A DNA stretch of 32,772 nt, from contig JAJRVC010000105.1 in NCBI GenBank assembly GCA_024277475.1, positions 1 to 32,772 on the forward strand. Direction: 5' to 3'. Source of the stretch: Deltaproteobacteria bacterium. Lineage in GTDB: Bacteria > Desulfobacterota > Desulfobacteria > Desulfobacterales > JAFDCJ01. This document shows positions 1-31,395 of the stretch, piece after piece. The notes below the pieces were generated by a model that saw only the letters and a list, made by a program, of their open reading frames with translations, was not told the DNA's origin and searched no databases. Made by a program: the position numbers and the translations under genes. Each line of letters starts with the position of its first letter. Position 1 is the first letter of the stretch.

Positions 1-581
1 AAAAAATTCGCCATGCCGATGAACCGTTTGATGACCAGCAGGTTTTCCCCCATGGGAAGCAGCTCGCCGCTCACCTGCCAGCGTTTCCCCTCGGTGTGTA
101 TGATTTCGATAGGGTCTACGGGCAGTACTTCTTCACTCATGGGATCAGGGCGCGCCAGGTCACATACAACTCTTCTTATACGCTCATCACCCAACTCTAC
201 ATAAACACCGGAGACTTCGGCCTTCCGCCTGCGGATTTCAACGGGCTTATTGTCAATATAAAGGACCTCTTTCTTGCCGTCTTCCAGCATTAAAAGAATA
301 ACATGGCCGGCAACATCGATTTGTCCCCGGAAGTCGTCTTCAGCTTTCTCTTGTTCCGTCGGCTCCTCGATCTTGATAACCAGCTCAATGTGAGTAGCCC
401 GTTCCACCACATCCATTAAAGGAAGTACAATGCCCACCATGAGCCAAAAGCAGGCAAAAGCAATCAGCAGACGGCGCACCCAATCCTCCGAACTTGACTT
501 TTTGGTTACGCGCTGTTTGCCGGCTTCCGAATTGAGCGATAACCCTCCGAAACTGTCGATCTTTTTCACCATTATCCTCAT
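1..581 (-). CDS. AEP-type ABC transporter permease, 5' part only (runs off window)
   Basis: An open frame reads from the ATG at 581 (one base after the stop of the ATPase gene) to the window edge, about 193 codons. A second ATG at 572 is also possible. One membrane segment is visible at about residues 34-53 (counting from the 572 start), after a basic N-terminus, as in the first helix of binding-protein-dependent permeases. The frame then carries about 130 hydrophilic residues before reaching an F-I-G-M-A-N-F motif at about 184-190. That motif resembles the F-V-G-L-A-N-Y segment that normally follows helix 1 closely. Position directly after the PhnS/PhnT-like genes identifies it as the inner-membrane channel of that transporter; the core permease domain lies outside the window. 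The large extracytoplasmic insertion is unusual. Family assignment rests mainly on context. Confidence 0.75.
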   Translation of the reverse strand, partial: MRIMVKKIDSFGGLSLNSEAGKQRVTKKSSSEDWVRRLLIAFACFWLMVGIVLPLMDVVERATHIELVIKIEEPTEQEKAEDDFRGQIDVAGHVILLMLEDGKKEVLYIDNKPVEIRRRKAEVSGVYVELGDERIRRVVCDLARPDPMSEEVLPVDPIEIIHTEGKRWQVSGELLPMGENLLVIKRFIGMANF

Positions 582-582
582 A

Positions 583-1710
583 TTAACGCGATCGCCGGGC
601 CTTAAAAAGGAGCAATCTCTCCGGAGGTAAATGTATCGGCAATTCCATTTGGGTGTGAATTTTTAATGTCTCCATCGCCTCCACCTGCAAGTCCATGTCA
701 AGGCGCTGGTCAGTCGCCCCTCCGGCCTGGTGAAGAACCCGAAGGCGTATGGTGTAGAGAGATCCCCTGAACTCAATGCGCTCGACCTTTGTTTTTAAAA
801 TGTTATCGGCAACCGGGGCGTCACGGATGACTCGAATATCTTCCGGTCGAATGGCAACGATCACGGGGCGTCCCTGGTAATTCATCGCCCGGCCGGATTT
901 CGGATGCAGTATGTACTGGCCGAAAAAAATAGAGTCCGGATCGCGTCCCATGCAGTCCGACATAAAGTTCATTTCACCGATAAAGCCCGCTACAAAGGTA
1001 TTCTCCGGAGATATATAGAGCTCATGCGGCGTGGCGTACTGCATCAGTTCCCCCTCGTCGATGACGACAACGCGATCGGCCATGGTCAGCGCCTCTTCCT
1101 GGTCGTGGGTAACCATAACCGTTGTAACCCCCAGGGTCTCTTGTATCCGGCGAATTTCCGACCGCAGGTGCACCCGGACGCGGGCATCCAAGGCTGAAAG
1201 GGGCTCATCAAGTAACAGAAGAGACGGACTCGGAGCCAGTGCCCGCGCCAGGGCTACCCGCTGCTGCTGACCACCGGACAATTGGGCCGGGTACTTGTGG
1301 GCCTGTTCCTCAATACCGACAAGTTCCAGCATCTCCATTGCGCGTTGTTCCCGTTGGGCCGCGGTGAACTGACGTCGATCAATTCCATACTGTACATTGC
1401 CGATGATGTTGATATTTGGAAACAGGGCATAGGACTGGAAAACAATTCCCAGTTTCCGTTTGGCCACCGGTTCACGGGATACGTCACGACCCGCAATCCA
1501 CACCGATCCGGAATTCTGCTCTTCCAGGCCTGCTATAACCCTCAAAAGCGTAGTCTTGCCGCAGCCGCTCGGACCCAGCACCGAAACAAACTCGCCCTGC
1601 TTGATGCCCACGCTGATATTGCTCAAGGCGGTGAACTGGCCAAACATCTTGGTTAGATTGCGAACCTCCAGGAAATACTCGCCATTGTTATTTTCGCTTT
1701 TCCGATCCAT
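583..1710 (-). CDS. phnT: ABC transporter ATP-binding protein, 2-aminoethylphosphonate (PhnT) type
   Basis: This 375-residue protein has all ABC ATPase motifs: Walker A GPSGCGKT at about 46-53, Q-loop FQSYALFP at about 91-98, signature LSGGQQQR at 144-151, Walker B LLLLDEP ending near 170 and the switch histidine in VTHDQEE at about 202. A C-terminal TOBE-like region (about 280-370) follows, as in the PotA/FbpC/PhnT branch. The stretch around R-D-V-S-R-E-P-V is typical of AEP transporter ATPases as I recall them. It lies between the binding-protein gene and the permease gene with one base before the permease ATG, so the genes are clearly co-transcribed. It would power import at the inner membrane. 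A polyamine or iron substrate cannot be excluded from this protein alone. Confidence 0.85.
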   Translation of the reverse strand: MDRKSENNNGEYFLEVRNLTKMFGQFTALSNISVGIKQGEFVSVLGPSGCGKTTLLRVIAGLEEQNSGSVWIAGRDVSREPVAKRKLGIVFQSYALFPNINIIGNVQYGIDRRQFTAAQREQRAMEMLELVGIEEQAHKYPAQLSGGQQQRVALARALAPSPSLLLLDEPLSALDARVRVHLRSEIRRIQETLGVTTVMVTHDQEEALTMADRVVVIDEGELMQYATPHELYISPENTFVAGFIGEMNFMSDCMGRDPDSIFFGQYILHPKSGRAMNYQGRPVIVAIRPEDIRVIRDAPVADNILKTKVERIEFRGSLYTIRLRVLHQAGGATDQRLDMDLQVEAMETLKIHTQMELPIHLPPERLLLFKARRSR

Positions 1711-1781: not shown

Positions 1782-2843
1782 CTACTTCTTTGGTGCACTC
1801 TTGCTGTCGTAACGTTTGGTCCACTCTTTGAGGATGCGCTTGCGGTTATTGGCAGCCCATTCCAGATCGTTATCAATAAGCACGGACATGGGGTCGGAAG
1901 GCCAACCCTCGGGAGCATCGACCTTTATATCGGTAGCCACGATGGGGTATACCTTGGCGTACATGGCCATGGCGTCATCGCTGATGGCCCAGTCGAGGAA
2001 TATCCTGGCCTCCTTTTTGATGCGGGGTTTCTTCATCAAAGCATTCGCCTCCACCTCGTAGCCTGAACCCTCTGCTGGAAAGGCGATCTCGACCGGCTCA
2101 CCTTTGGCGCGCTGCTTGAAGCCACGATAGGCAAATGAAAGGCCAATCGCAAATTCGCCTTTGCCGGCCATTTTGGCCGGTTTAGATCCTGAATGAGTGT
2201 ACATGGCAATGTTTTCGTGCAGCTGGTCCAGATAATCCCAGCCCTTCTTTTCCCCCATGAGCTGAAGGATCGCTGAAACGGTCAGGAATCCGGTGCCGGA
2301 GGAAGCTGGGTTCGGCATAACGATCTGCCCTTTGTACATTGGTTTGATAAGATCGGCATAGGATTTGGGCATGACAAGATTTTTAGCTTTCATCTCAATG
2401 GTGTTGCCCACGATGCCGGTAACATAGGCCTTAATCCCGACCCAGCGAACAGGGTCGTTTTTACCATCCTTCATCCCTTTCCTGACCTTTTCAAGGCCTT
2501 TGGGGTTATACCCTTTGAGCATCCCCAGCTCATTGCAAACGAGGAGGCTTGTGGCCGCCGTACCCCATACCACGTCTGCCTGAATGTTGTCTTTTTCAGC
2601 CAGAAGCTTAGCAGTGACAATACCCGTTGAATCCCGATAAAGGGTAATGTTGATGTCCGGATGGGCCTTCTTGAAGGCCGGCAGGTAAACGGCTAGCTCG
2701 TCGTCTTCCAGGGCCGTGTAGACCAGAAGATCTTTGGCCCACACCCCGCTGAATCCCAAAAATATCATGAGCGCCGTCAAACCAAAAACAACACCCATGA
2801 AATGACCCCGACTTCTCGAATGCAAAATGTTCATCATCATCAT
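1782..2843 (-). CDS. phnS: Periplasmic 2-aminoethylphosphonate-type ABC substrate-binding protein
   Basis: This 353-residue protein has an N-terminal signal peptide: a basic start, then a hydrophobic run to about residue 35 ending G-V-W-A-K. The mature part begins with [19 protein letters not shown] and contains [15 protein letters not shown] and [13 protein letters not shown]. These are hallmarks of the AEP-linked branch of the Fe3+/polyamine binding-protein superfamily. It should capture substrate in the periplasm and deliver it to the permease. The start follows an excellent AAAGGAGG site, and four consecutive ATG codons make the exact start ambiguous by up to three residues. It is the first gene of the transporter operon and is divergent from a LysR gene. 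The substrate is inferred from family resemblance and from the PhnW homologue nearby; taurine or another C2 amino-sulfonate remains possible. Confidence 0.85.
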
Positions 2844-3371: not shown

Positions 3372-4277
3372 ATGAATTTAAATCAACTAAAAATTTTTTA
3401 TATGGCCGCTAAACGTGGAAACCTGAGCAAAGCTGCTGATGATCTCTTCATCACCCAGCCGGCGATTACCAAGGGAATTCAACGAATTCAGGATTATTAC
3501 GACATCAGGCTGGTGGAGCGTTTCGGGAAAAAAATGGTTTTGACGGATGCCGGTGAGGTGCTTTTCAAAATTGCCGGAAAGATATTCGAGCTGGAAAAAC
3601 AGGCCGAAGAAAGTATCCGCGAATTCAAACAGCGTAAAAAAGGACGGATTCGCATTCAAGCCAGTGAAAGTTTCGGCGCATATTACCTTCCGTCCATTAT
3701 GAACCCTTTCAGCAAAGCACATCCATTGATCAAAATTTCGGTGCATATCCTCCCAACCGAGCATGTGGTAAAAAATGTTGCCGATTTAGAGTGCGACATC
3801 GGCTTTATCTCTTATCCAATCGAACAGGAAAAGGTACTCATCCGCGAGATACTCGAAGATCAGCTTGTTTTCATTTTACCGCCTGATCACCCCATCTGCC
3901 GGCGCAAACGCTTTAAACCTCAGAATCTGGAAGGTATGCCGATAATTGTTCATGAAAAAAACTCGACACCGCATCGGGTTCTCCATGAATTTATCGAAAA
4001 AAATGAAATAACCGTAACCCTATCTTTAGAGCTCTCGAGCAATAGGGCTATTAAACGGGCCGTTGAAAGCGGTTTGGGAATTGCTTTGATAAGTCGAAAG
4101 ATTGCCGATGAAGAAATTAAAACAGGTAGATTGGCGGCTATTCCTTTACCGGACCCGTCGATAAAGAGAAAATTTTACCTGGTTCATCACAAGGAAAAAT
4201 ACATGTCCGACACGCTTCAAAACTTAATCGCCCAAGTTGATCAATGGGCAAGCGGCTATTCCAGGCGGATATCCTGA
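3372..4277 (+). CDS. LysR family transcriptional regulator
   Basis: This is a 301-residue protein of normal LysR length. The winged helix-turn-helix occupies residues 1-60 (MNLNQLKIFYMAAKRGNLSK, then a TQPAITKGIQ recognition helix). A linker helix and a two-lobed effector-binding domain (about 90-295, beginning RIRIQASESFGAYYLP) follow. It sits between the AEP-type transporter operon, from which it diverges, and the PhnW/aldehyde dehydrogenase operon, which converges on it. It is therefore the obvious candidate regulator of both. The effector may be the imported substrate or an aldehyde/acyl intermediate (inference). No strong ribosome binding site precedes the ATG, which suggests low expression. 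Confidence 0.92.
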   Translation: MNLNQLKIFYMAAKRGNLSKAADDLFITQPAITKGIQRIQDYYDIRLVERFGKKMVLTDAGEVLFKIAGKIFELEKQAEESIREFKQRKKGRIRIQASESFGAYYLPSIMNPFSKAHPLIKISVHILPTEHVVKNVADLECDIGFISYPIEQEKVLIREILEDQLVFILPPDHPICRRKRFKPQNLEGMPIIVHEKNSTPHRVLHEFIEKNEITVTLSLELSSNRAIKRAVESGLGIALISRKIADEEIKTGRLAAIPLPDPSIKRKFYLVHHKEKYMSDTLQNLIAQVDQWASGYSRRIS

Positions 4278-4644: not shown

Positions 4645-6033
4645 CTAATCCCGGCCCCATTTCTTCAGATAATCTCCAAAAAGCTCTTCCTCCGAAGGGA
4701 TGTACTCCTCCTTGGGAATTGATAACAGGGTATAGTTGAGAAAGTTTTCCCAGTTTACGTTGCCACTGAAGATGTTGCCGGCCCAGGTGCCGCAGCCCAG
4801 CGTATCCGTGGTGGGCAGACCGGTGGTCCATCCGCCGCTGTTGGCATGGGCGTGAGGCATATTGCAGACAATTCGCCCCACATTGGCCCGCAGGGCGAGT
4901 TTAACCCGCCGCTCATCATTTTCCGTGTGTATGGATGTGGAATGACCCTCGCCGGAAAACTTGAGGATTTTCTCCAAACGGTCCAACATTTCGTCGAAAT
5001 CGGCCCATTTCCAGACGGTGAGCACAGGCGATATTTTTTCACCTGAAAAACGGTCTTCAGGACCTATCTTTTCTCCGATTACCATCAGGAACCGGGTGCC
5101 TTCAGGAACCGCCAACCCCGCGTTTTCAGCAATAAATGCAACCGGTCTGGCCACGATGTCGCGGTTCAAATGGGTTCCGTCCGGCCACATATATCTTCTC
5201 AATTTTTCCCGCTCATCCGTACTGCACAAATATCCGCCTTCGGATTTTAGCGCCTCAACCATGTCATCGAAGATGCTTTCATAGAGTGCCACCGCGTTTT
5301 CGGACGAACAGGATGCTGAATTATTGGCGGTCTTAGAAAGGCGGATTTTATGAGCGGCAGCAGCCAAATCAACCGTATCGTCCACAATGGATACTACATT
5401 ACCGGCCCCGACTGTTTGCGCCGGCTTGCCGGCCGCGTATACAACTTTCACCAGCGCGGCCCCGCCCGTGGCTACGGCATAGTCGCAGTTGGCCATCAGT
5501 TCAGCGGTTTTGGCGTGGCTGGTCTTTTGAACGCACTGTACCAGGTCCACCGGTGCCCCTATTTTTTCAAGCGCCCTGCGCACGTGCTGAACCGTTTCAT
5601 AGGACGTCTTTTGTGTTCGAGGATGGGGCGAGACGATCTGAGCGTTTCTTGTCTTCAATGTGCTCAGGGCCAGGCAGCAGATGGTGGACTCCGGGTTGGT
5701 ACAAGGTACGACATTGGCAATCACCCCGATTGGTTTGGCGTATTTGCGGATACCCAGGGTCTTGTCCTCTTCGATCAGACCGCAGGTTTTGGCATTTCGC
5801 ATATCCCAAAGTGTACCCAGAGTCTTATTCTTAATCTTATTCACCTTATCTTCAGCATTGCCGATATTGGATTCATCCACGGCCATATGCCCCAACTTAT
5901 GACGAACGTCTTCTTTTAAAAGCTCCCAGGCCACGGCCTGGACCATCTCGTCGACTTTCTCCTGGGGCCAGTATTCAACTTCACGAAACGCTTTTTCAGC
6001 TTTAACGTACATTTCTTTAATATTGTCTTCCAT
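4645..6033 (-). CDS. CoA-acylating aldehyde dehydrogenase, sulfoacetaldehyde dehydrogenase (SauS)-like
   Basis: This 462-residue protein belongs to the acylating branch of the aldehyde dehydrogenase superfamily (EutE/AdhE-N/SauS). It has the N-P-E-S-T segment at about 113-117, an ATGGAA dinucleotide-site stretch at about 188-193 and the active-site cysteine at about 242 in SASCSSENA, equivalent to C-A-S-E in AdhE. The length fits SauS. The expected reaction is aldehyde + CoA + NAD(P)+ to acyl-CoA. It is the last gene of the operon, after the PhnW-type transaminase that would supply the aldehyde. Phosphonoacetaldehyde (if AEP is the substrate) or sulfoacetaldehyde (if taurine) would give phosphonoacetyl-CoA or sulfoacetyl-CoA. 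The usual non-acylating PhnY is a different branch. Family is secure; substrate is inferred. Confidence 0.85.
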   Translation of the reverse strand: MEDNIKEMYVKAEKAFREVEYWPQEKVDEMVQAVAWELLKEDVRHKLGHMAVDESNIGNAEDKVNKIKNKTLGTLWDMRNAKTCGLIEEDKTLGIRKYAKPIGVIANVVPCTNPESTICCLALSTLKTRNAQIVSPHPRTQKTSYETVQHVRRALEKIGAPVDLVQCVQKTSHAKTAELMANCDYAVATGGAALVKVVYAAGKPAQTVGAGNVVSIVDDTVDLAAAAHKIRLSKTANNSASCSSENAVALYESIFDDMVEALKSEGGYLCSTDEREKLRRYMWPDGTHLNRDIVARPVAFIAENAGLAVPEGTRFLMVIGEKIGPEDRFSGEKISPVLTVWKWADFDEMLDRLEKILKFSGEGHSTSIHTENDERRVKLALRANVGRIVCNMPHAHANSGGWTTGLPTTDTLGCGTWAGNIFSGNVNWENFLNYTLLSIPKEEYIPSEEELFGDYLKKWGRD

Positions 6034-6116
6034 GATTTTCCGTCGACCTCCATTTTTAGTTTAATCATTGAATGGTTGATTGGTTAAAAGGGTATTTATC
6101 CCAATTTGATTGGAGT

Positions 6117-7253
6117 CTAAGCTTTTATCGGCAAAGTGAATCCCATCTCCCGGAATGCTTCTTTGGCTACCACAAAAAAATCTTCAATATCCTTGTAAGT
6201 GATCCGGCCCAGGTTACACAACCTGAAGGTAGCCAGGCCGAACATTTTTCCCGGGTAAATAGTAAAGCCCCGTTCGTAGCAATAGTCATGCAGACTTGCA
6301 AAATCGAATCGATTATCTTCGGGCGCCTTGACGGTGACCACCAGGTGCCCTTGAATCTCTTTATCAATAACAGTCCCCAGGCCGATTTCTGCCAGGCCCC
6401 GATGAATGGCTTCCCAGCATTTTGTCAAACGTTCCCAGCGGGCCTGCTCACCTTCTTGCCAGTATTCCTTGAGGGCTTGCTGAAGCGCATATAGGGTCTG
6501 AACCGGCGGGGTAAAGTGCATCTCCCCGACCCGTTCAAAAAAATCATACTGCATGTACAGGTTGCAATAATAGGAACGCGTTGGATAGCCTTTCGATTTT
6601 TTAATTTCAGCGATCTTGCCGACGGTCCAGGAAGCGCCTGTCATGGCTGCAAGCCCCTTTTGAGCCGAAGACATCAGAAAATCGATGTTCTGTTCTTCAA
6701 TGTCGATGGGAATCAGGCCATAGGTAGATATGGTGTCCACGACAAAAATACAGCCGTTGTCATGGGATAGCCGGCCTATTTCTTTGATCGGATTTAAAAC
6801 ACCGGTCCCGGTTTCATGGTGAACCGTAGCCACAACCGCAATGTCTTTATCTTTTTCCAAAGTCTTTTGAACAACGTTAAGATCAGGCCGGCCGGTGGTA
6901 GGAAATTCAATGTTGACGCAGGGGATATGGTAATAGCGAGCGATCTCCACAACCCTTGATGAATAGGCGCCGTTATTGACGACGCAGATTTTTTTACCTT
7001 CCGGTACAAGCGAGTTAACACAAACATCCTGAATGATCGTCCCTGACCCGGTGAAGATGACAGCGGTATATTTATCCGGATCACCGTGTACTACTTTGAC
7101 CAGATCTTTTCTCACATCCGTCATAACATCGACAAACTCCTGCTCTCGGGGACATACATCCGGAACAACCTGCGCATATTTAACGGCATCGCTGGTGGTT
7201 GCCGGACCCGGGTTCAGCAAAACATTTCTTTTTACAGGTTTGGCCACCTTCAA
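6117..7253 (-). CDS. phnW: PhnW-type 2-aminoethylphosphonate:pyruvate transaminase
   Basis: This is a PLP-dependent fold-type I class V aminotransferase of about 378 residues, the usual PhnW length. Shared with enterobacterial PhnW are RNVLLNPGPATTS near the N-terminus, FTGSGT, NNGAYSSRVVE, HETGTGVLNPI, the PLP lysine in SSAQKG, FTPPVQTLYALQQALKE, and YPGK plus FRLCNLGRI near the C-terminus. It would move the amino group of AEP to pyruvate, giving phosphonoacetaldehyde and alanine. A TTG start at 7253 is chosen because AAAAGGGAG lies six bases upstream of it; the frame extends to a GTG at 7286 that lacks such a site. It is third in the operon, 163 bp after the second citrate-synthase-like gene. 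A taurine-type amine is an alternative substrate. Confidence 0.85.
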   Translation of the reverse strand: MKVAKPVKRNVLLNPGPATTSDAVKYAQVVPDVCPREQEFVDVMTDVRKDLVKVVHGDPDKYTAVIFTGSGTIIQDVCVNSLVPEGKKICVVNNGAYSSRVVEIARYYHIPCVNIEFPTTGRPDLNVVQKTLEKDKDIAVVATVHHETGTGVLNPIKEIGRLSHDNGCIFVVDTISTYGLIPIDIEEQNIDFLMSSAQKGLAAMTGASWTVGKIAEIKKSKGYPTRSYYCNLYMQYDFFERVGEMHFTPPVQTLYALQQALKEYWQEGEQARWERLTKCWEAIHRGLAEIGLGTVIDKEIQGHLVVTVKAPEDNRFDFASLHDYCYERGFTIYPGKMFGLATFRLCNLGRITYKDIEDFFVVAKEAFREMGFTLPIKA

Positions 7254-7416
7254 TTTTTTCTCCCTTTTGTAGTAGTTAGCCGGCACATTCTATCGGATGT
7301 GCTTACGGTTGATGTCTGGGGTTTGGGCAGAGCATCGCCGAACCCGCTGTTGAAAGCATCACATCCTAGCGTTGCAACATGGGGTGCAGTCGACTGCAGC
7401 AGCAGGACGCCAGATT

Positions 7417-8496
7417 CTATAGTTTTCCGACCTTCCTGATTCCCGACTTCCTGCTAGGATCCTCAATCTCCTCAACGATGCTGAATCCGCTGCCACTAAG
7501 ATTTTTCATATTTTCAAAACGCTGTTTCCATTCATCTGGGGTTTTGCAAATCGCCGGTTTGGCAACTTTTTCCCGATCAGCTAAAGGTGGCACCGGCCGT
7601 TCTTCCGGACCGTCATAATCTTCTTCAGGCGTCAATTCCTGCCCCAGCCGGTTTGATTCTTCCCTTTCAACTTCTTCAATGTAATGGGCACCGGCGGCAA
7701 AAGAACGGGTGACTGCAAGAATCGCCCAGGTGGCCTCAGGGGTGAACCCCAGATCCATCATGGTGGCTCCCGTGGCACCGAGCATATCCAGATCCACCGG
7801 CTCGTCGAATGCCTCCTGGGCCGCTTTGACGACTTCCTTTGTCAAGGCGATATATTCTCCGGCTATCCCAAGTTTTTCCGCACGGGCCAACATGCGTTTT
7901 GCCGCAGGATCTTTGAGCATGAGACCCGAAACACCCAACGCTTCATCATTGAGATTCTCCTCGACGAGAAGCGCAGCTGCCGCCTGAAGGGAAAGGTCCT
8001 CCTCTTTTATCTTTGTCAAATAGTTTTCGAGTCTGTTCCCAAAAGCGGAAAAGGCCCCGTAAGCATGACCGAAGGCCATGATCGACGCACCACAGGCCTG
8101 GGTTAAAAAAGTTTTGGATTTGGCCACGATCCTGGATATGGCTGCCGGAGCAGACAGCCCGTCCTCGAGTGTCAGGATCATGATGTAATTGAGCATTTTT
8201 TCCTCTTCAAGGGTCGGTATTCGCGCCTGATAATCCACAAAAAGGACTTCAATGACCCCGTAGCCTTCTTCCATCAGCTCTGTTGTATCATATCCCCTGG
8301 TAACAATCCGGTGCACGTTCTTGTACGCGACTTCGGACACCCACTGGAACGGCGCTCTTTTCGTATCCCTCGGCATCGTGCCGTATTCTCTGTCATAATA
8401 GTCAAAAGGATTCTTCGGGCTGCCCAGATTTCCGATTGCCCGCTCCCTTTTTGCTTTATTCAATGCATTTGTCTTTTCTTTATCTAAATAACCCAT
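7417..8496 (-). CDS. Citrate synthase / citryl-CoA lyase-fold protein, divergent paralogue A
   Basis: This 359-residue protein shows the small-domain and CoA-site pattern of the citrate synthase superfamily: RGYDTTELMEEGYG (about 67-80), FGHAYGAF (142-149), and the helix pair ATGATMMDLGFTPEATWAIL (about 241-260). Two canonical sites seem lost. The G-x-G-H motif is GVSGLMLKDP (188-197), and the Asp of the N-I-D-G / N-V-D motif is Leu at about 239. It has an extra N-terminal ~45 residues and a charged tail (about 285-359) containing Y-D-G-P-E-E-R, which resembles Y-V-G-P-E-D-R in its partner. It starts 13 bp inside the upstream paralogue with a GGAG site, so the two are translationally coupled and probably form a hetero-oligomer. 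Reaction unknown; it may act on the acyl-CoA made by the downstream dehydrogenase. Confidence 0.8.
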   Translation of the reverse strand: MGYLDKEKTNALNKAKRERAIGNLGSPKNPFDYYDREYGTMPRDTKRAPFQWVSEVAYKNVHRIVTRGYDTTELMEEGYGVIEVLFVDYQARIPTLEEEKMLNYIMILTLEDGLSAPAAISRIVAKSKTFLTQACGASIMAFGHAYGAFSAFGNRLENYLTKIKEEDLSLQAAAALLVEENLNDEALGVSGLMLKDPAAKRMLARAEKLGIAGEYIALTKEVVKAAQEAFDEPVDLDMLGATGATMMDLGFTPEATWAILAVTRSFAAGAHYIEEVEREESNRLGQELTPEEDYDGPEERPVPPLADREKVAKPAICKTPDEWKQRFENMKNLSGSGFSIVEEIEDPSRKSGIRKVGKL

Positions 8497-9380
8497 TGCT
8501 TATATTCTCCTTCTTCTTTCTGCTTCTTCGCATATTCCTGCCGTTCTTCCTGTTTGGGAACGATTCTGTCTTCAGGACCCACATACTTGATCATGGACAG
8601 GTCGATCATCTGCACCATCGGCTCATTTCTGGATGCCCCCCAGGCACGGCCTTTTTTCATGTTAAACAAAGCATGGGCAGCACAGCTGAATCCCCGGACA
8701 ACACTGCCGATACACCATCCCGCATTCGGTGAAAAGCCGATCTCCATCAGAGCAGTGTTCCCTGAACCCACGACATTCACCCCCACATAGGAGCGTCCAT
8801 CCGCCTTACGTCTAGCATGAAAATACTTTTCCAGGGCCCTTTGAAACTCGAGATAAACCCCTTTTAGCTCAAGTTCTTCCTGCTTGAGGTGAATCGGTTC
8901 CGCTCTGGGATCGCTATCGATGTGCTGGGGCTGCCCCATACCCATGACCGGCCGCCCCGCATCCATATATTCATCGACAAGGGTCTTGGCCATTTCATCA
9001 ACGGTTTTGCCCTCTTTTTCAGCCCGTTCCAGATATTTGTTGAGCATATACCCATGGGCGGCCCCGGGTCCGTGAACACCGCCAAAAGTCGAGACCGCTG
9101 CTGCCACACAAACTGGGAGATTCGGCCTTCCCGCGCTTACGCCGATGGCGCCGACTGCCGACGGTGACATGGAATGTTCCAGAAACACCCCCATCTCGTA
9201 TTTGAGCATTTTTTCTTCCTCTTCCGTTGGAATCCGGTTCTGAAACAGCACAAACATCGCATCATAAAACGAATAGCCCTCTTCAGCCAAATCGCTCAGG
9301 TTATATCCTCGCATCACGGTTTTTTCTTCTGTCTTAAAAGAAATTGAAGTCTTTCTCCTGAACAGTGGTTTCCTTTCCAT
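8484..9380 (-). CDS. Citrate synthase / citryl-CoA lyase-fold protein, divergent paralogue B
   Basis: About 298 residues. The ATG at 9380 is preferred because GGAGG lies five bases upstream; the frame extends to a GTG at 9392 that would overlap this site. Family features are MRGYNLSDLAEEGYSFYD (23-40), FGGVHGPGAAHG (99-110) with a histidine where citrate synthase has its first catalytic His, and the DPRAEPI segment (157-163). The canonical G-x-G-H is GMGQPQH (147-153), so the first His is Gln. The catalytic Asp position is Val at about 204 (NVVGSG). It is the first gene of the four-gene operon. Together with paralogue A it could be a lyase or synthase acting on an activated C2 phosphonate or sulfonate thioester, but the missing residues mean ordinary citrate synthase or citryl-CoA lyase activity should not be assumed. 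Confidence 0.8.
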   Translation of the reverse strand: MERKPLFRRKTSISFKTEEKTVMRGYNLSDLAEEGYSFYDAMFVLFQNRIPTEEEEKMLKYEMGVFLEHSMSPSAVGAIGVSAGRPNLPVCVAAAVSTFGGVHGPGAAHGYMLNKYLERAEKEGKTVDEMAKTLVDEYMDAGRPVMGMGQPQHIDSDPRAEPIHLKQEELELKGVYLEFQRALEKYFHARRKADGRSYVGVNVVGSGNTALMEIGFSPNAGWCIGSVVRGFSCAAHALFNMKKGRAWGASRNEPMVQMIDLSMIKYVGPEDRIVPKQEERQEYAKKQKEEGEYKQWVI

Positions 9381-9450
9381 ATTTTCCTCCACATAGGTAT
9401 TTAAAATAATTTTCAGCCGCTACATCTTCTTTTAGCCGGAGTTTTTCGCT

Positions 9451-9479
9451 TTAATAGGCAAAAGATAATTATAAGTCAA
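9451..9479 (-). promoter_or_regulatory. Candidate sigma-70 promoter of the citrate-synthase-like/phnW/aldehyde dehydrogenase operon
   Basis: On the minus strand TTGACT (9474-9479) and TATTAA (9451-9456) are separated by exactly 17 bp. The leader before the ATG at 9380 would be about 65 bases. The -10 and spacing are identical to those of the proposed transporter promoter at 2941-2969. Confidence 0.55.
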
Positions 9480-9737: not shown

Positions 9738-10613
9738 TCAAAACGGTGTCAAGCTTTCAACACCGTTTTCCGTGACCACAACAGTCTGCTCAAACTGGGC
9801 GGACATTAACCCGTCTTTGGTGACCGCCGTCCAATTGTCGTCAAGTATTCTTAAATCTTTTTTGCCGAGATTGATCATCGGTTCAATGGTAAAGACCATT
9901 CCGGGAATCAGACCGATCCCAGCGCCTTTATGGCCGAAATGGGGAACCTGGGGGGCTTCGTGGAATCCAAATCCCACACCATGGCCCACAAACTCGCGTA
10001 CGACTGAACATCCCTGCGCCTCCGCATAGGTTTGAATGCTCCAGCCGATATCTCCAATGGTATTTCCGGGTTTCACCACAGACATACCTCTTCTGAGACA
10101 TTCCCGGGCGATGTCCACAATCTTGCGGGCATCGGGCTCGGGGGCTCCGGCAAAATAGGTTTTATTCGCATCGGCATAATAGCCGTTTAAGATGGAAGTG
10201 ATGTCGACATTGACAATATCGCCGTCTTTTATGCCCCGGTTTCCAGGGATCCCGTGACAAATGACCTCATTGATGGACACACAAATACTTTTGGGGAAAC
10301 CGCGATAATTTAAAGGAGCGGGGGTGGCGCCGTTTTTAACCGTAAACTCATGGGCCAGCGCGTTCAGGTCGTCGGTGGTGATACCGGGTTTGATTTCCGA
10401 CTCCACCAGATCGAGAGTGTCCAGCACCAGACGTCCGGCCTTGCGAATACCTTCGATATCAGCCGCTTTTTTAAGGCGGATATTATATTTGCGGGCATAG
10501 GTCGCCTCAGAATCCTCGGTCTCGGCTTCAGCTTTGCCCAGACAGCATTTTTTAAATTTTAAGCCGCTGCCGCAGGGGCAGGGATCATTTCGACCCACTT
10601 TCACAGTTTTCAT
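9738..10613 (-). CDS. map: Type I methionine aminopeptidase with N-terminal SEC-C metal-binding motif
   Basis: About 291 residues. The N-terminus carries a SEC-C zinc motif ([16 protein letters not shown], about 9-24), followed by the pita-bread peptidase domain. All five metal ligands are recognisable: Asp in NVDITS, Asp in ADANKTYF, His in EFVGHGVG, Glu in FTIEPMI and Glu in QFEQTV. A conserved second-shell His occurs in GFHEAPQ. It removes the initiator methionine from nascent proteins in the cytosol; SEC-C tails are known on a subset of these enzymes and may help ribosome or protein contact. The ATG at 10613 has AGGGA five bases upstream; an ATG at 10619 is too close to that site. It stands alone between repeat copies, with no clear tie to its neighbours. 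Confidence 0.95.
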
Positions 10614-10641
10614 TTTCATCCCTGTCTGTCTCTCTTGACTC

Positions 10642-10769: not shown

Positions 10770-11669
10770 TTAGAAAAAAAACCCAAGAATGTATTTTCCG
10801 GCTACAAACAGCACGCAGGCACACAACATGCCTTTGATGAATAGGGAGGGCACGTATCTCTGGGTACGGGCTCCCAGATACATTCCTATAACCCCGCCGA
10901 TACCAAAAAGAGCCCCTAAACGCCAGTCCGGAGCGACCGACAAATCGGGATAAAATTGAGCCAGGATCTGATAGAAAAATACGCCGGCCACAGAGGTTAC
11001 AAATGTCCCCATCAAAGCGGCTCCGGCCACCGCATAAACCGGCAGACCGATAATGGCCACAAAAAAGGGCGCCACAATGGACCCACCGCCGATTCCATAA
11101 ATTCCTCCTGCAATACCCACTAAAAAGCAGACAGCATAGACTAGGGGTGTTGAGAACCCAAATATTTCACTGTCATATTCAAATTCCACTTTCTGCAAGG
11201 TGCTGACGATTACACGTACGGAATGAGAGGCACCGGCTGGGGCAGACGGCGCTTTTCCCTTATTGTGGCTTTTTCGTCGGGATACATCCAACAGCAGGCG
11301 CCAGCCAATATACAAAAGAACAAACCCGACAAAGAGTTTGAAACTATTGGGGTTCGGCAGATACACAATTCGAATCCAAGCGCCGATAAAGACACCGGGT
11401 AATGTTCCGATCGTCACTGCCCATGTCAGGGGCCAGAGCATTCGCCCCTCTCTGACGTAACGATAAACACCGCTGGGAATTGCCACGATGTTAAAAACAT
11501 GGTTGGTTGCGCTCACCGATGGTGTGCTATAGCCTAAAAAGCTGACCTGAAAGGGAAGCAGCAGAAACGCACCGGAAACACCGCCCATTGAAGTGAAAAA
11601 CGAGACAATAAAAGCAACTGCCAAAGGAACCAGCGGGTTTACTTCAACACCTGAAACCGGAAAAATCAT
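10770..11669 (-). CDS. TauE/SafE family sulfite/organosulfonate exporter-like membrane permease
   Basis: This 299-residue, very hydrophobic protein has about eight membrane helices. It shows the TauE/SafE repeated G-G pattern: SFFTSMGGVSGAFLLLPF near the N-terminus and VGIAGGIYGIGGGSIVAPFF in the second half. Conserved SATNHVFNIVAIPSG and GTFVTSVAGVFFY segments are also present. A cytoplasmic loop of about 35 residues (KSHNKGKAPS onward) separates the halves. Members export sulfite, sulfoacetate or other small anions. The start has AAGGGG seven bases upstream. It is a single gene; the ~150 bp to map and ~366 bp to the tungstate operon suggest separate transcription. If the operon nearby degrades a sulfonate this could release sulfite, but that link is only positional. 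Confidence 0.85.
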   Translation of the reverse strand: MIFPVSGVEVNPLVPLAVAFIVSFFTSMGGVSGAFLLLPFQVSFLGYSTPSVSATNHVFNIVAIPSGVYRYVREGRMLWPLTWAVTIGTLPGVFIGAWIRIVYLPNPNSFKLFVGFVLLYIGWRLLLDVSRRKSHNKGKAPSAPAGASHSVRVIVSTLQKVEFEYDSEIFGFSTPLVYAVCFLVGIAGGIYGIGGGSIVAPFFVAIIGLPVYAVAGAALMGTFVTSVAGVFFYQILAQFYPDLSVAPDWRLGALFGIGGVIGMYLGARTQRYVPSLFIKGMLCACVLFVAGKYILGFFF

Positions 11670-12035: not shown

Positions 12036-12505
12036 TTAACTAAAAATTTGAATGGCCTCGGAAGGAATGCAGACGCTAACGATTTCACCGACCGGCAGAC
12101 GGGCTTGCCCATATTCTTTTGGGGACATCAAGAGCACAATATTGATGCCCGCATCAACAACCACCCTGATCCTGGAGTTTTCCGCCATCACCTGGGTCAC
12201 CCTGCCCTGCACCCCGTTTCGTTCACAACGCTTATCCCCGGCATCGACGAGATCGATCTTTTGCGGATCGATAACGACACGAACTCTTCGATTACCGGTG
12301 TTATGGTACCTTTGCGGTATTTGGAGAAAAATTTTATTATGGATCGCACAATGTAATTTTCCAGCACTGTCAAGCCTCAAAACTCCGCTGAATACATTTT
12401 CATAGACGCTTTCCACAAGTTGCCCGTGATCCAGTACTAGGGTGTACTGCGCCAGCCCGGCCGCCTGCTGGCGATCGTGGGTGGTGAACAGAATGGTAAT
12501 TTTTT
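12036..12505 (-). pseudogene. tupC: tupC 3' fragment: switch-histidine region and TOBE-like domain of tungstate ABC ATPase
   Basis: This frame continues the ATPase after a frameshift at the six-T run 12500-12505. Reading on the minus strand from that run gives ITILFTTHDRQQAAGLAQY, the ABC switch-histidine segment, then a linker and a TOBE-like domain (about the last 70 residues, VQGRVTQVMAENSRIRVVVD). As a free-standing frame its first ATG is near 12416 and would give a 126-residue TOBE-only protein. No ribosome binding site supports independent translation. If the shift is real the transporter ATPase is split; if it is an assembly error in a homopolymer, 12036-13057 is one gene of about 340 codons. 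Confidence 0.8.
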
Positions 12506-13057
12506 GCTCTCATTAATCTGTTTTAAGATATTGATGATAATATTTTGATTCTCGATGTCTACGCTGGCCGTGGGCTCATCACAGAGAAAAACCCGGGGCG
12601 ATAGAGCCAACGCTCGGGCAATGGCCACTCGCTGTGTTTCGCCCCCTGAAAGGTGCTGGGCCCGGGCTTTGGAAAAGTAGCGCATCCTCACCAGATCCAG
12701 CGTTTCGTCGATGATACGCTCTCTCTGATTTTTACGGATGCCTCTGATTTTTAATCCGAATTCCAGGTTCTTGTAAACCGTTGTGGTGAAGAGAATCGGG
12801 TGCTGGTCCACCATGATGACTTCTTTGCGCAGGCGCTGCAGTTCGGACTCGGTGAATCTCACCGGTTGGGAGCGGTAGTGGATGTGACCGGTACTGGGAA
12901 CCTCAATGAAACTCAGGATATTTAACAAAGTCGTCTTCCCGGCGCCATTGGGTCCCAGCAGTGCATAAATACGTTCGGATGCGATTTCAAGTCTCGGTAT
13001 TTTCAGAACGGTTCTGTCCCCGTATACCCGGGTCAATTGTGAAACAAGATACTCCAT
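12437..13057 (-). pseudogene. tupC: tupC 5' fragment: nucleotide-binding domain of tungstate ABC ATPase, frameshifted
   Basis: 206 codons with Walker A GPNGAGKTT (about 34-42), Q-loop VDQHPILF, signature LSGGETQRV and Walker B VFLCDEPTASVD intact. After NESKK the frame turns into unrelated residues (LPFCSPPTIASRRPGW) and stops at 12437. The -1 frame at that point encodes the expected T-T-H-D switch region, so one base is missing from an A-run (six instead of seven on the coding strand). The ATG at 13057 overlaps the tupB stop by one base, so the gene is translationally coupled to the permease. The product would energise tungstate (or molybdate) import. An assembly or sequencing error is a serious alternative to a true pseudogene. 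Confidence 0.85.
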
Positions 13058-13752
13058 CAGGTCCGCACCCGCCCCTGAAAGAAGTGGAATAATATATTCA
13101 TGCCGAAACTTAACCCCAACAGCACCATTCCAAGAGCAACAGCAAGAGTAAAGGACCCTTTATCGTATTCAAGCGCCATGGCCGTCGTCATGGTGCGGGT
13201 AAATCCCTTAATATTACCGCCGAGCATCATACTGATGCCGACTTCGGAAATAACCCTGCCAAAAGCGGCGATAACCGCAGCAACGATTCCAAAACGGGCC
13301 TCCCTGAATAATATCCAGACGGTTTGGCGGCGGTTAGCCCCCAGTGTCATCGCTGTTTTACGATAACGTTCGTCGAGCCGGCTGATAGCCGCAATGGTAA
13401 ATGCAGCCACCACCGGAACAATTAGAATAATTTGCCCAATGATAATCGCCTTTTGAGTATAGAGCAGATCCAGCGGGCCGAAGATCCCCCTGCGGGAAAC
13501 AAAGGCATAGACAAAAAGGCCGATCACCACCGTCGGAAGTGCCAGCAATGTATTCAACACGGTGATAACCATATGTTTTCCTGAAAATTCGCTGAAGGCG
13601 ATCGAAAACCCCATGGGCACACCGATCAGAGCGGCTAATAATGTCGAAGCACAACTTACTTTCAAAGAAACGCCGATAATGGCGATCATTTCACCATCCA
13701 GTGAAACGACCAGAAGAATGGCGGAAATAAAGCTGTCTATGAGAAGTTCCAT
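13057..13752 (-). CDS. tupB: Tungstate ABC transporter permease
   Basis: About 231 residues with five to six hydrophobic helices and the BPD permease EAA-like loop (RKTAMTLGANRRQTVWILFR, then EARFGIVAAVIAAFGRVISE). The first helix region SLKVSCASTLLAALIGVPMG and the G-R-V-I-S-E-V-G-I-S segment are typical of TupB/WtpB proteins. The ATG at 13752 is preferred because GAGG lies five bases upstream; a GTG at 13758 is in frame but lacks such a site. Its stop overlaps the tupC start. It would form the membrane channel for tungstate delivered by TupA. Tungsten is needed for enzymes such as aldehyde:ferredoxin oxidoreductase and some formate dehydrogenases; none is encoded in this window. Confidence 0.9.
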   Translation of the reverse strand: MELLIDSFISAILLVVSLDGEMIAIIGVSLKVSCASTLLAALIGVPMGFSIAFSEFSGKHMVITVLNTLLALPTVVIGLFVYAFVSRRGIFGPLDLLYTQKAIIIGQIILIVPVVAAFTIAAISRLDERYRKTAMTLGANRRQTVWILFREARFGIVAAVIAAFGRVISEVGISMMLGGNIKGFTRTMTTAMALEYDKGSFTLAVALGMVLLGLSFGMNILFHFFQGRVRT

Positions 13753-13916
13753 ACACACCTCACTATATAAGGAAATTCAAAACAAATCCAAATGACAAAA
13801 ATTCAAATGAACAGAACAAAGTAACCCAGAAGACCTAAAACATGGTAGAAACCGTTTTGAACATTCGAATCTTTAATTTTTTTCGTATTTCGGATTTCGT
13901 GCTTCGGATTTCCGGT

Positions 13917-14810
13917 TTACCGGCCATCCGGATAAAACAGTTGTTTATCCAACAATCTGTAATCGGCGATGACCGCCTGCCCACGGTCTGAAACCAGCCA
14001 TTGGGCAAACGCCTCAGCCAGTTTATACTTCACATGGGGGTGTTTTTGCGGATTAATAGGAATGATACCATAGGGATTGGAAAGCAACGCATCGCCCTCG
14101 CAGAGAACGTCCAGCTCAAGGGGCACATCACGGCCGAATTTATATTTGATGTAAGTCCCCCTGTCCGCCAGCGTGTAGGCTTGTTTCTCATCAGCAAACA
14201 TGAGGGTCTTTCCCATTCCCTGACCGATGGATAGATACCATTTCCCCGAACCCGCGGGGCTGACAAAGGAAATCTCCCGTTTTTTGCCCTTTTTGACGAT
14301 GGTATGGGTTGTCTTTTCAAGCTCCAGGCCGGTTTTTTGCCAGAGCGCCTGCTCCTTGGTGTGGGTGCCGCTGTCATCTCCGCGTGAAATGAAAAGGGCT
14401 TCGGATTCGGCAATCTTTTTCAGTGCTGCCGGGGCATCGGTCATTCCCTTGATCTTTGCGGGATCGGCGGCAGGGCCTAAAATAACAAAATCATTGTGCA
14501 TCACTGCATAACGTTGGGTGCCGTAACCGTCTTTAACAAAACTTTCTTCCCGGGCCTTGGCGTGTACGAAAATCACATCCACATTGCCGTCCATTCCATC
14601 CCGGATGGCCGCCCCGGTTCCTTTGGCAATCACCTTCACCTGGATGCCGGTATCCTTTTCCAATTCGGGCAGCAACACATCAAGCAGACCTGAGGCCTGG
14701 GTACTTGTCGTGGTCGACATTTTTAAGATTTTTTCTCCAGCCAGAGCCCCCCATGACATGAAAAAAACAACTGCAATCAAACCTGAGACTAAAATGTAAA
14801 ACCGCTTCAT
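13917..14810 (-). CDS. tupA: Periplasmic tungstate-binding protein
   Basis: This 297-residue protein has a clear signal peptide (MKRFYILVSGLIAVVFFMSW, cleavage near ALAGE). The mature start KILKMSTTTSTQASGLLDVL contains the T-T-T-S oxyanion-binding motif diagnostic of TupA rather than ModA. RDGMDGNVDVIFVHAKA and SRGDDSGTHTKE are other conserved TupA segments. The start has AGGAG six bases upstream. It is separated from tupB by 164 bp that hold only short TTTCGGATTT-like repeats, and follows the regulator gene by 17 bp. It should bind tungstate in the periplasm with high affinity; a secondary molybdate role is possible. Confidence 0.92.
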   Translation of the reverse strand: MKRFYILVSGLIAVVFFMSWGALAGEKILKMSTTTSTQASGLLDVLLPELEKDTGIQVKVIAKGTGAAIRDGMDGNVDVIFVHAKAREESFVKDGYGTQRYAVMHNDFVILGPAADPAKIKGMTDAPAALKKIAESEALFISRGDDSGTHTKEQALWQKTGLELEKTTHTIVKKGKKREISFVSPAGSGKWYLSIGQGMGKTLMFADEKQAYTLADRGTYIKYKFGRDVPLELDVLCEGDALLSNPYGIIPINPQKHPHVKYKLAEAFAQWLVSDRGQAVIADYRLLDKQLFYPDGR

Positions 14811-14827
14811 CCTTCGCTCCTTTGAAT

Positions 14828-20763: not shown

Positions 20764-20772
20764 AGGGATATC

Positions 20773-24252: not shown

Positions 24253-24351
24253 GATCTGAACACCAAACCGGCGGGGGGGGATTTCCAGGAACTTGCCGGC
24301 GCGGCCTTGCCATTCGTATCATTGCGGTTTGCAGCCGAAAGGTAAGCAAGG

Positions 24352-25320: not shown

Positions 25321-25329
25321 GAGAATCTC

Positions 25330-26205: not shown

Positions 26206-26208
26206 ATT

Positions 26209-31119: not shown

Positions 31120-31395
31120 TCGCAACCTCCTTTTTAATTTAATAGGAAGGCAGGATTATTTTTAACCTGCTTTCCCATATTATATTTTTTCGATGGACAG
31201 TCACCAATTAGTGACGAATGACGAATGACGATTGAATGTATTCTATCTATTTATAAAAAAGATTGAGTGAAGCGATTCAATCTCTCGACATTCAGCGGTT
31301 CGCTTTTCGGGCCTAACGATCCTTACGAAAACGAGGGACCCGCAACCAACAACCAGTACCCAATACCCAGTGACCAGTACCCAGTAAATAGTAAC
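31120..31395. other. 276 bp gap with short direct repeats
   Basis: No gene is seen. It contains tandem ATGACGA units near 31210-31230 and clustered CCAGTACCCA variants at about 31354-31386. They look like degenerate micro-repeats with no evident function. Confidence 0.4.

What the first reader, a model, noticed from the sequence alone, without database searches (positions are those of the whole stretch)
4645..9479. Unusual C2 phosphonate/sulfonate operon: two citrate-synthase-fold proteins + PhnW + CoA-acylating aldehyde dehydrogenase
Seen: a four-gene minus-strand operon in the order CS-like B, CS-like A, PhnW-type transaminase, SauS-type acylating aldehyde dehydrogenase, beside an AEP-type ABC transporter and a LysR gene. 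Known AEP routes use PhnX, or PhnY with PhnA, after PhnW; none of those is in the window. Inference: the aldehyde becomes phosphonoacetyl-CoA (or sulfoacetyl-CoA). The citrate-synthase-fold pair, whose relatives stabilise an acetyl-CoA enolate, could release phosphate (or a sulfur oxyanion) so that acetyl-CoA is conserved. This would be an energy-saving way to break a C-P or C-S bond under anoxic conditions. I know of no described pathway with this gene set.
Basis: partly seen in the sequence, partly recalled or inferred. Interest (0 to 1): 0.88.

Follow-up and report, generated by a model that had tools for sequence, protein, structure and literature searches.

The report
Candidate CoA-dependent phosphonate breakdown pathway
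A conserved gene set, seen mostly in uncultured bacteria of about eleven phyla, looks like an undescribed way to break the carbon-phosphorus bond of natural phosphonates while the carbon is attached to coenzyme A, which would save energy and release phosphate; no enzyme of it has been tested yet.

Summary
The operon is real: B, A, PhnW and a SauS-like CoA-acylating aldehyde dehydrogenase (4645-9392, minus strand), beside LysR and a PhnS2T2-type transporter. A genome scan gave 59 loci in about 11 phyla: B adjoins A in 58; SauS-like follows in 50 (8 end at the contig edge, 1 is an exception); PhnW lies directly after A in 23; 38 carry a strict phosphonate-catabolism gene. PhnX is over cut-off in 0 of 50 carrier genomes and PhnA in 7; of 10 PhnW-positive non-carriers, 6 have PhnX. 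In one divergent operon, aldehyde:ferredoxin oxidoreductase plus CoA transferase stand in place of SauS, supporting an acyl-CoA intermediate. A and B have the citryl-CoA lyase fold but lack most of its catalytic residues, so they are not members of that family. Best reading: aminoethylphosphonate to phosphonoacetaldehyde to phosphonoacetyl-CoA to acetyl-CoA plus phosphate. Whether A/B or a HAD breaks the bond is undecided; every step after PhnW is inferred from sequence and context. My literature searches found no description.

The parts
8484..9380 (-). B: citryl-CoA-lyase-fold protein, 298 aa from the likely ATG (302 aa from a GTG at 9392); probable catalytic subunit. Invariant H107, H113 (HGPG region), Q154, H157 (QPQH) and R163 (DPRA); counterpart of citrate synthase Asp375 lost. 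Residue numbers from the 302-aa form.
7417..8496 (-). A: paralogue of B, 359 aa, with N- and C-terminal extensions; lacks the canonical CS residues and B's QPQH loop; overlaps B by 13 nt, a spacing measured in 46 of 57 pairs; probable partner subunit
6117..7286 (-). PhnW/AepZ-type 2-aminoethylphosphonate transaminase (TIGR03301 424.4 bits, cut-off 360.8); nearest solved relative 6pd1
4645..6033 (-). SauS-like CoA-acylating aldehyde dehydrogenase (SauS model 496.8 bits, under its cut-off 600); proposed acylating phosphonoacetaldehyde dehydrogenase
3372..4277 (+). LysR regulator; LysR genes 45-64% identical lie in some related loci, near the unlinked HAD gene of G011 (61%) and in the sister system (54-56%)
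1782..2843 (-). PhnS2-type aminoethylphosphonate-binding protein (448.1 bits, cut-off 392.75)
583..1710 (-). PhnT2-type ATPase (456.8 bits, cut-off 457.7)
3..581 (-). Start of a permease, weakly PhnU2-like (26% over 176 aa), cut by the window edge

Best explanation
A catabolic module for C2 phosphonates. Aminoethylphosphonate is imported (PhnS2T2U2-like) and transaminated by PhnW to phosphonoacetaldehyde (family assignment; in other loci PbfA can make the same aldehyde). The SauS-like enzyme oxidises it with CoA to phosphonoacetyl-CoA (inferred). The A/B heteromer then breaks the C-P bond with acetyl-CoA enolate as leaving group, held by the one citrate-synthase histidine that B keeps (H107), the phosphoryl group being taken by water or by an enzyme or small-molecule acceptor; the HAD hydrolase completes or couples phosphate release (both inferred). 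Products: acetyl-CoA, phosphate, NAD(P)H. It works like malonyl-CoA decarboxylation with phosphoryl in place of CO2. The confidence covers the whole statement; the pathway level (C-P cleavage at a phosphonoacyl-CoA, by A/B or by a HAD) I put near 0.75.
For: B adjoins A in 58 of 59 loci; SauS-like follows A directly or overlapping (gap under 320 nt) in 34 and after an inserted PhnW in 16 of the 50 loci that show it. 38 of 59 loci have a strict phosphonate gene (PhnW, PbfA, PhnA, PhnD, PhnS2 or PhnU2), 44 if HpnZ counts; representatives pass curated cut-offs: PbfA 717.6 of 525, PhnW 482.5 of 400.8, HpnZ 356.6 of 328.1, PhnA 521.6 of 407.55. PhnX over cut-off 0 of 50 carriers, PhnA 7 of 50, PhnW 34 of 50 against 10 of 296 other genomes of the phylum of G014; of those 10, PhnX in 6 and PhnA in 0. 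HAD in 41 of 50 carriers and in none of 295 + 300 non-carriers. The L060 operon AOR-HAD-B-A-CoA transferase alpha-beta-SucC-like has another way to an acyl-CoA in place of SauS. B keeps H107 and R163 but not the deprotonating Asp, as expected if the enolate arises by loss of phosphoryl and not of a proton.
Against: No biochemistry. Loci were collected with A as query, so the presence of A is by construction. The HAD's recurrence suggests that A/B alone may not finish the reaction, and HADs are the more usual phosphoryl-transfer fold. A citryl-CoA-lyase fold has no phosphoryl acceptor or metal site that I know of. 15 of 59 loci show no phosphonate marker; of the 13 of these whose genomes were tested, 5 have PhnW and 2 others PhnA elsewhere, 6 neither. 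L027 has no SauS on its contig (SauS and HAD lie on another contig), and the L060 genome has no PhnW at E 1e-90. AlphaFold models are poor (mean pLDDT 64), so no active site could be built. Nearly all genomes are metagenome-assembled; the window's own genome is not held, so its HAD is unseen.
Confidence: 0.46

Rival explanations
1. The same pathway, but a HAD hydrolase breaks the C-P bond (aspartate attack on phosphorus, as in PhnX, with a thioester enolate instead of an imine as sink). A/B prepares the substrate or handles the product, for example by condensing phosphonoacetyl-CoA with a 2-oxo acid to an adduct that the HAD dephosphonylates with loss of the hydroxyl, an enzymatic counterpart of the Horner-Wadsworth-Emmons reaction.
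For: HAD was found in no sampled non-carrier. Position D+2 of its motif I, the general acid of phosphatases (recalled), is G in 22, D in 5 and S in 1 of 28; PhnX and dehalogenases also lack it (recalled). No cap lysine conserved at 93% or more for a PhnX-type imine, but conserved R21, R48, R51 and nearly R62. The sister system has another phosphonatase-like HAD (TIGR03351 166.9 bits, cut-off 218.9; motif DLSGT) beside a single CS-like protein and SauS. Three of the nine carriers without the HAD (G004, G041, G048) have a PhnX-like protein at 96.7-109.8 bits; in L055 (G048) it lies about 6 kb from SauS and is 81% identical to that of L032, as if one HAD could replace the other. B keeps R163, by alignment the counterpart of an oxaloacetate-binding arginine (recalled). 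I raised this rival from 0.30 to 0.32 and lowered the best explanation from 0.48 to 0.46 after this last finding.
Against: Neither kind of HAD was found, at these thresholds, in six of the nine, including G045, taken from a chromosome-scale record. The second oxaloacetate arginine of citrate synthase has no counterpart (my reading, position recalled), against a dicarboxylate acceptor.
Confidence: 0.32
2. Ordinary chemistry: the HAD is a new phosphonoacetaldehyde hydrolase giving acetaldehyde, the SauS-like enzyme is an acetaldehyde dehydrogenase making acetyl-CoA, and A/B is a side enzyme of acetyl-CoA.
For: The dehydrogenase also matches the AdhE model (377.2 bits). AOR plus CoA transferase in L060 would equally turn acetaldehyde into acetyl-CoA.
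Against: No conserved cap lysine in the HAD; the SauS model beats the AdhE model by about 120 bits; HAD not found in 9 of 50 carriers; leaves the constant, overlapping A/B pair without a purpose.
Confidence: 0.08
3. A sulfonate pathway: sulfoacetaldehyde to sulfoacetyl-CoA to acetyl-CoA plus sulfite.
For: Best named relative of the dehydrogenase is SauS; a TauE/SafE-type exporter lies 1.4 kb upstream of B in the window; L037 has a split decarboxylase resembling sulfopyruvate and phosphonopyruvate decarboxylases about equally (alpha 118.6 and 139.3 bits, beta 190.4 and 174).
Against: SauS cut-off not met; no homologue of the window's TauE at E 1e-10 in the 59 loci; no taurine or isethionate gene was recognised among the neighbour representatives that I scanned (not all neighbours were scanned), while 38 of 59 loci have strict phosphonate genes.
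Confidence: 0.06
4. A phosphonate-making pathway run in reverse, with the transaminase making aminoethylphosphonate.
For: The window PhnW is nearest in the PDB to 6pd1 (301.3 bits against 207.7 for 1m32), which I recall as the biosynthetic PntC-AEPT fusion.
Against: Importers, PbfA, PhnA and HpnZ neighbours are catabolic; no PepM was recognised among the neighbour representatives that I scanned; forming C-P from acetyl-CoA and phosphate is uphill (established chemistry, not tested).
Confidence: 0.02

Closest known systems
PhnW-PhnX (phosphonatase) pathway
   Same: Starts with PhnW and phosphonoacetaldehyde; ends in phosphate; a HAD-fold protein takes part
   Different: PhnX over cut-off absent (0 of 50 carriers); the proposed intermediate is a CoA thioester; the HAD is a different family without a conserved cap lysine
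PhnW-PhnY-PhnA pathway
   Same: Aldehyde is oxidised before C-P cleavage
   Different: Oxidation is CoA-acylating, so the thioester is kept; PhnA over cut-off only in 7 of 50 carriers
SauS, acylating sulfoacetaldehyde dehydrogenase
   Same: Same family of acylating dehydrogenases, best-scoring named model
   Different: About 100 bits under the cut-off; context is phosphonate
Citryl-CoA lyase / ATP-citrate lyase lyase module / citrate synthase
   Same: Fold (6hxp is the top structure hit for both A and B, from low-confidence models, and the top sequence hit)
   Different: Two paired paralogues; catalytic triad mostly lost; invariant QPQH motif in B, also in the sister protein C
PbfA, PbfC/D, PbfF extensions of aminoethylphosphonate catabolism
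   Same: A PbfA gene (45% identity or more to a representative over the PbfA cut-off) lies in 13 of 59 loci
   Different: In the papers consulted PbfA goes with PhnX or PhnY/PhnA; here it is found with B-A and, where visible, SauS and HAD

Membership tests
PhnWX pathway | PhnX phosphonoacetaldehyde hydrolase present | tested here: not met
   TIGR01422 over cut-off in 0 of 50 carrier genomes; best 125.3 bits against 220, with 12 of 50 genomes at 96.7-125.3; none in the window
PhnWYA pathway | PhnA phosphonoacetate hydrolase present | tested here: not met
   Over cut-off in 7 of 50 carrier genomes, so not met as a rule; in L031 and L033 PhnA stands right behind B-A-SauS-HAD
PhnWYA pathway | PhnY non-acylating phosphonoacetaldehyde dehydrogenase | tested here: inconclusive
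   Not searched genome-wide. One neighbouring aldehyde dehydrogenase representative scored 284.7 bits on TIGR03250 against 635.65
PhnW | Curated model cut-off | tested here: met
   TIGR03301 424.4 of 360.8 and PRK13479 298.8 of 296 met; TIGR02326 293.9 of 400.8 not met
SauS | NF047625 cut-off 600 bits | tested here: not met
   496.8 bits
Citryl-CoA lyase / citrate synthase | Curated family cut-offs | tested here: not met
   Best A 92.5 of 245 bits, best B 113.1 of 212; Pfam fold-level PF00285 met
Citryl-CoA lyase / citrate synthase | Catalytic His, His, Asp | tested here: not met
   By my reading of the alignments to 6hxp: B keeps the first His (H107) and has Q154 and V208 at the others; A has Y146, no counterpart and L239 (which residues form the triad is recalled; no structure-based check)
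PhnX-type HAD phosphonatase | Cap lysine forming an imine | tested here: not met
   No lysine conserved at 93% or more before K157 in 28 aligned HADs (requirement recalled)
Hydrolytic C-P cleavage in general | Phosphate released from a phosphonate | not testable with these tools
   Needs enzyme assay

The most novel reading that the evidence does not exclude
Nature has a further general solution for hydrolysing a C-P bond: activation as a CoA thioester (phosphonoacetyl-CoA), cleaved by a citrate-synthase-fold heteromer whose catalytic residues were rebuilt so that the acetyl-CoA enolate forms by loss of phosphoryl instead of a proton, with a dedicated HAD partner. It would be energy-conserving, spread over about eleven phyla, and have a simpler sister (single protein C with SauS and a PhnX-like HAD).
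Probability: 0.45. Interest if true: 0.92.

Novelty: new variant of a known kind. Interest (0 to 1): 0.82.

Why it matters
Known hydrolytic C-P enzymes use an imine (PhnX), zinc (PhnA) or a metal-bound enolate (PalA) as electron sink (recalled); a CoA thioester would be a new one and would let the cell keep acetyl-CoA. A paper on Desulfotignum phosphitoxidans (PMC4046663, passages seen) states that no PhnX homologue was found in that strain, in line with the other sulfate-reducer genomes then available, and that 18 of 95 strains had phnA; this module could answer part of that gap (my phylum sample does hold six genomes with PhnX). It would add an unrecognised sink for aminoethylphosphonate and give a function to protein families now named 'hypothetical' or 'citrate synthase' (names).

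Tried and rejected
Sulfonate reading: looked for a conserved TauE (no hit in 59 loci) and read the L037 decarboxylase (ambiguous). Active-site modelling: AlphaFold2 on A and on B gave mean pLDDT 64; only the fold is usable; a heteromer was not tried (the tool takes single chains). Own-genome search: not held. Plasmids: no match to A among 72,556 records. Distribution by sampling: A is rare, 1 of 296 non-centre genomes of the phylum of G014 and 0 of 300 of the phylum of G045, so genome-level comparison had to rest on the 50 carriers; one search had no positive control (its centre G045 lacks the HAD). Phylum names of these samples are my inference from the titles of L017 (Desulfobacterales) and L051 (Chloroflexota); the tool does not name them. 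Fisher values (HAD 41/50 against 0/595 p 2e-56; PhnX among PhnW-positives 0/34 against 6/10 p 3e-5; PhnW 34/50 against 10/296 p 5e-26) ignore kinship and are nominal; the 50 carriers also span other phyla than the background sample. The class III aminotransferase cluster first labelled PbfA is mixed: L043's is HemL-like and one each in L049 and L051 is another type, so PbfA was recounted at 45% identity or more, 13 loci. The HAD count per locus was too low in my first ORF choice (28); searching all ORFs gives 35 of 59 at E 1e-8. A 10-locus EamA cluster (representative 143 of 288 bits on phn_DUF6) was not counted as a marker. Family models were run on representatives only, not on every neighbour. 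Literature: ten searches in an open-access library; absence there is not absence in print.

Full report
WHAT IS THERE. The four-gene operon is as described. PhnW passes TIGR03301; the dehydrogenase is best on the SauS model, but under its cut-off; A and B reach the citrate synthase Pfam family, and citryl-CoA lyase models only below cut-off. B probably starts at the ATG at 9380, behind GGAGG. A and B are paralogues (30% identity; profile comparison E 2.7e-34). Both belong to large families: 1329 (A) and 511 (B) database proteins at E 1e-10 or better, of which only the best 120 each were listed.

CONSERVATION. One scan of genome contigs with an alignment of 28 A proteins gave 59 loci. By record titles they come from Desulfobacterota and other 'Deltaproteobacteria', SAR324, Planctomycetota, Chloroflexota, Verrucomicrobiota, Gemmatimonadota, Latescibacterota, Bacteroidota, Spirochaetota, Nitrospirota and Pseudomonadota (Alpha and Gamma); most are metagenome-assembled. 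The two peptide patterns used favour close relatives (best-segment identity 65-86%). B adjoins A in 58 of 59; L047 starts inside A. A 13-nt overlap is measured in 46 of 57 pairs; the other 11 differ in the start codon that my ORF caller chose or by short gaps. A SauS-like gene is seen in 50 of 59 loci, directly after A or overlapping in 34 and after an inserted PhnW in 16. Of the other nine, eight end at the contig edge after A or PhnW, and one, L027, has no SauS on its contig; in that genome SauS and HAD stand together on another contig. PhnW is directly downstream of A in 23 of 59 loci (my count, contig-end fragments included). In a tree of 51 A, 49 B and 3 C proteins, A and B each form one clade and C joins B (the program warns of long branches, so the joining point is unsure).

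NEIGHBOURS. Clustering of neighbours and family models on representatives give, of 59 loci: PhnW cluster 34; HAD 28 in my ORF choice and 35 at E 1e-8 over all ORFs; HpnZ cluster 16 (representative 356.6 bits, cut-off 328.1); PbfA 13 at 45% identity or more to a representative with 717.6 bits (cut-off 525); GlpT-like MFS 10; PhnA 3; PhnD-like 4; PhnS2 4 and PhnU2 5, some of these weak. 38 of 59 loci have at least one strict phosphonate gene, six more only HpnZ, 15 none; of 13 of these 15 tested at genome level, five have PhnW and two others PhnA elsewhere. L023 reads MFS-PhnW-PbfA-B-A-SauS-HAD; L031 reads B-A-SauS-HAD-PhnA-HpnZ and then PhnS2, an ABC ATPase and PhnU2.

MISSING ENZYMES. Against a clean reading: 12 of the 50 have a PhnX-like protein at 96.7-125.3 bits (cut-off 220), of the kind that scores 170.2 on TIGR03351 (cut-off 218.9) in L032. 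In 297 genomes of the phylum of G014, centre included, PhnW is over cut-off in 11, A present in 2 and HAD in the same 2. Of the ten PhnW-positive non-carriers six have PhnX over cut-off, within 1.6 kb of PhnW, and none has PhnA over cut-off. So carriers have PhnW without PhnX, whereas six of ten comparable non-carriers have PhnX.

THE HAD. It is not in the window. Carrier genomes have it in 41 of 50 at E 1e-25 or better (in G034 only a 106-aa piece), mostly beside SauS but sometimes far away: in G014 about 1.4 Mb from the operon, in G011 about 2 kb from a LysR 61% identical to the window's. Non-carriers: 0 of 295 (with 35) and 0 of 300 (with 78; that call had no positive control). Nine carriers lack it: G002, G004, G010, G012, G013, G032, G041, G045, G048. 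For G002, G004, G010, G013 and G032 the locus contig ends soon after the genes seen; G045 is a chromosome-scale record. G004, G041 and G048 have the other, PhnX-like HAD, in L055 (G048) about 6 kb from SauS. Motif I of the HAD is D-F-(G 22, D 5, S 1)-Q-T in 28; no conserved cap lysine; several conserved arginines.

TWO NATURAL VARIANTS. L060 (genome G329, contig 8.5 kb) reads AOR-HAD-B-A-CoA transferase alpha-CoA transferase beta-start of a SucC-like ligase, all on one strand, with no SauS in the stretch; SauS was not searched elsewhere in that genome. This is a second way from an aldehyde to an acyl-CoA and therefore the best contextual evidence that A/B and HAD work at the acyl-CoA level; it does not by itself say that the acyl group still bears phosphorus, and no PhnW was found in this genome at E 1e-90. 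Among 99 relatives searched, G329 itself included, three others hold a single protein C (46% to B, with HGPG, QPQH and DPRA kept) before a SauS-like gene (63-64%), with a LysR (54-56%), a PhnX-like HAD (166.9 bits in L072, cut-off 218.9), two class III aminotransferases and, where the contig reaches, a PhnS2/PhnU2-like transporter below cut-offs. C has A-like N-terminal and B-like catalytic features, so A/B may descend from such a single gene (inference).

MECHANISM. Shown: gene content, order, co-occurrence, absence of PhnX over cut-off, fold family. Inferred: every reaction after PhnW. In citrate synthase the first His holds the enol(ate), Asp takes the proton and the second His binds the acceptor (recalled). 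By alignment with citryl-CoA lyase 6hxp, B keeps the first and has Gln and Val at the others; A keeps none. An enolate formed by loss of phosphoryl needs no proton-removing Asp, which fits; but loss of residues also fits a quite different reaction. Because of the HADs I hold two versions open: A/B cleaves with HAD help, or a HAD cleaves what A/B prepares.

KNOWN OR NEW. Term counts over the main text and some passages of four phosphonate papers were seen: PMC8154272 (PbfA) and PMC12366243 (PbfF) have no word beginning with citrate, citryl or CoA; PMC10590968 (PbfC/D) none with citrate or citryl, and its six 'coa' words that I saw were other words; the review PMC10574752 none with citrate synthase, citryl, acetyl-CoA or phosphonoacetyl. 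'Phosphonoacetyl-CoA' occurs in one paper of the library, as a predicted product in flavophos biosynthesis (PMC12871164, one passage seen). The searches listed under Tried and rejected found no description. I file the finding as a new variant of hydrolytic phosphonate catabolism; if CoA-level cleavage by the citrate-synthase fold is proved it would be categorically new chemistry.

Noticed in passing
window 10770-11669: TauE/SafE-family exporter, separated from B by a methionyl aminopeptidase gene with a SEC-C motif (9738-10619); no homologue of either in the 59 loci at E 1e-10 for TauE
   Followed up: partly
window 12437-15751: Tungstate-uptake-like genes (TupC/B/A type, below cut-offs) next to an HTH plus molybdopterin-biosynthesis-like protein; interesting because L060 uses an aldehyde:ferredoxin oxidoreductase
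   Followed up: no
window 19117-22437: Two adjacent 548- and 554-aa amidohydrolase-like paralogues (28% identical) in front of a dipeptide/nickel-type ABC transporter (22630-28220); substrate unknown
   Followed up: no
window 30241-31125: Keto acid cleavage (KCE/BKACE-type, below cut-off) protein near an enoyl-CoA hydratase-like gene and a biotin carboxylase fragment
   Followed up: no
L022 6069-8860, L032 6252-9056, L051 1-2497: Pairs of related methyltransferase genes (the two L022 copies match Pfam MtmB, monomethylamine methyltransferase) near phosphonate modules; could demethylate N-methyl-aminoethylphosphonate
   Followed up: partly
L037 8520-9654: Split decarboxylase, about equally like phosphonopyruvate and sulfopyruvate decarboxylase, closely before B-A-SauS
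   Followed up: partly
L004, L008, L021, L032, L055, L072-L074: 'PhnX-like' HAD hydrolases (scored on L032 and L072: 170.2 and 166.9 bits on TIGR03351, cut-off 218.9), several beside HpnZ; a further phosphonatase-like family without known reaction
   Followed up: partly
L007 18734-19939, L054 7947-9116: Saccharopine-dehydrogenase-like proteins next to PbfA genes; possible unrecognised step for hydroxy-aminoethylphosphonate (differs from the published PbfF, which its paper places in pfam02826)
   Followed up: partly
L074 12225-13130: CitE-like protein overlapping the end of SauS in one sister locus; would fit a condensation-type mechanism
   Followed up: no
L041 1326-8924: Genes like those of inositol or hexonate catabolism directly before B-A-SauS-HAD, with no phosphonate marker in the locus
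   Followed up: no
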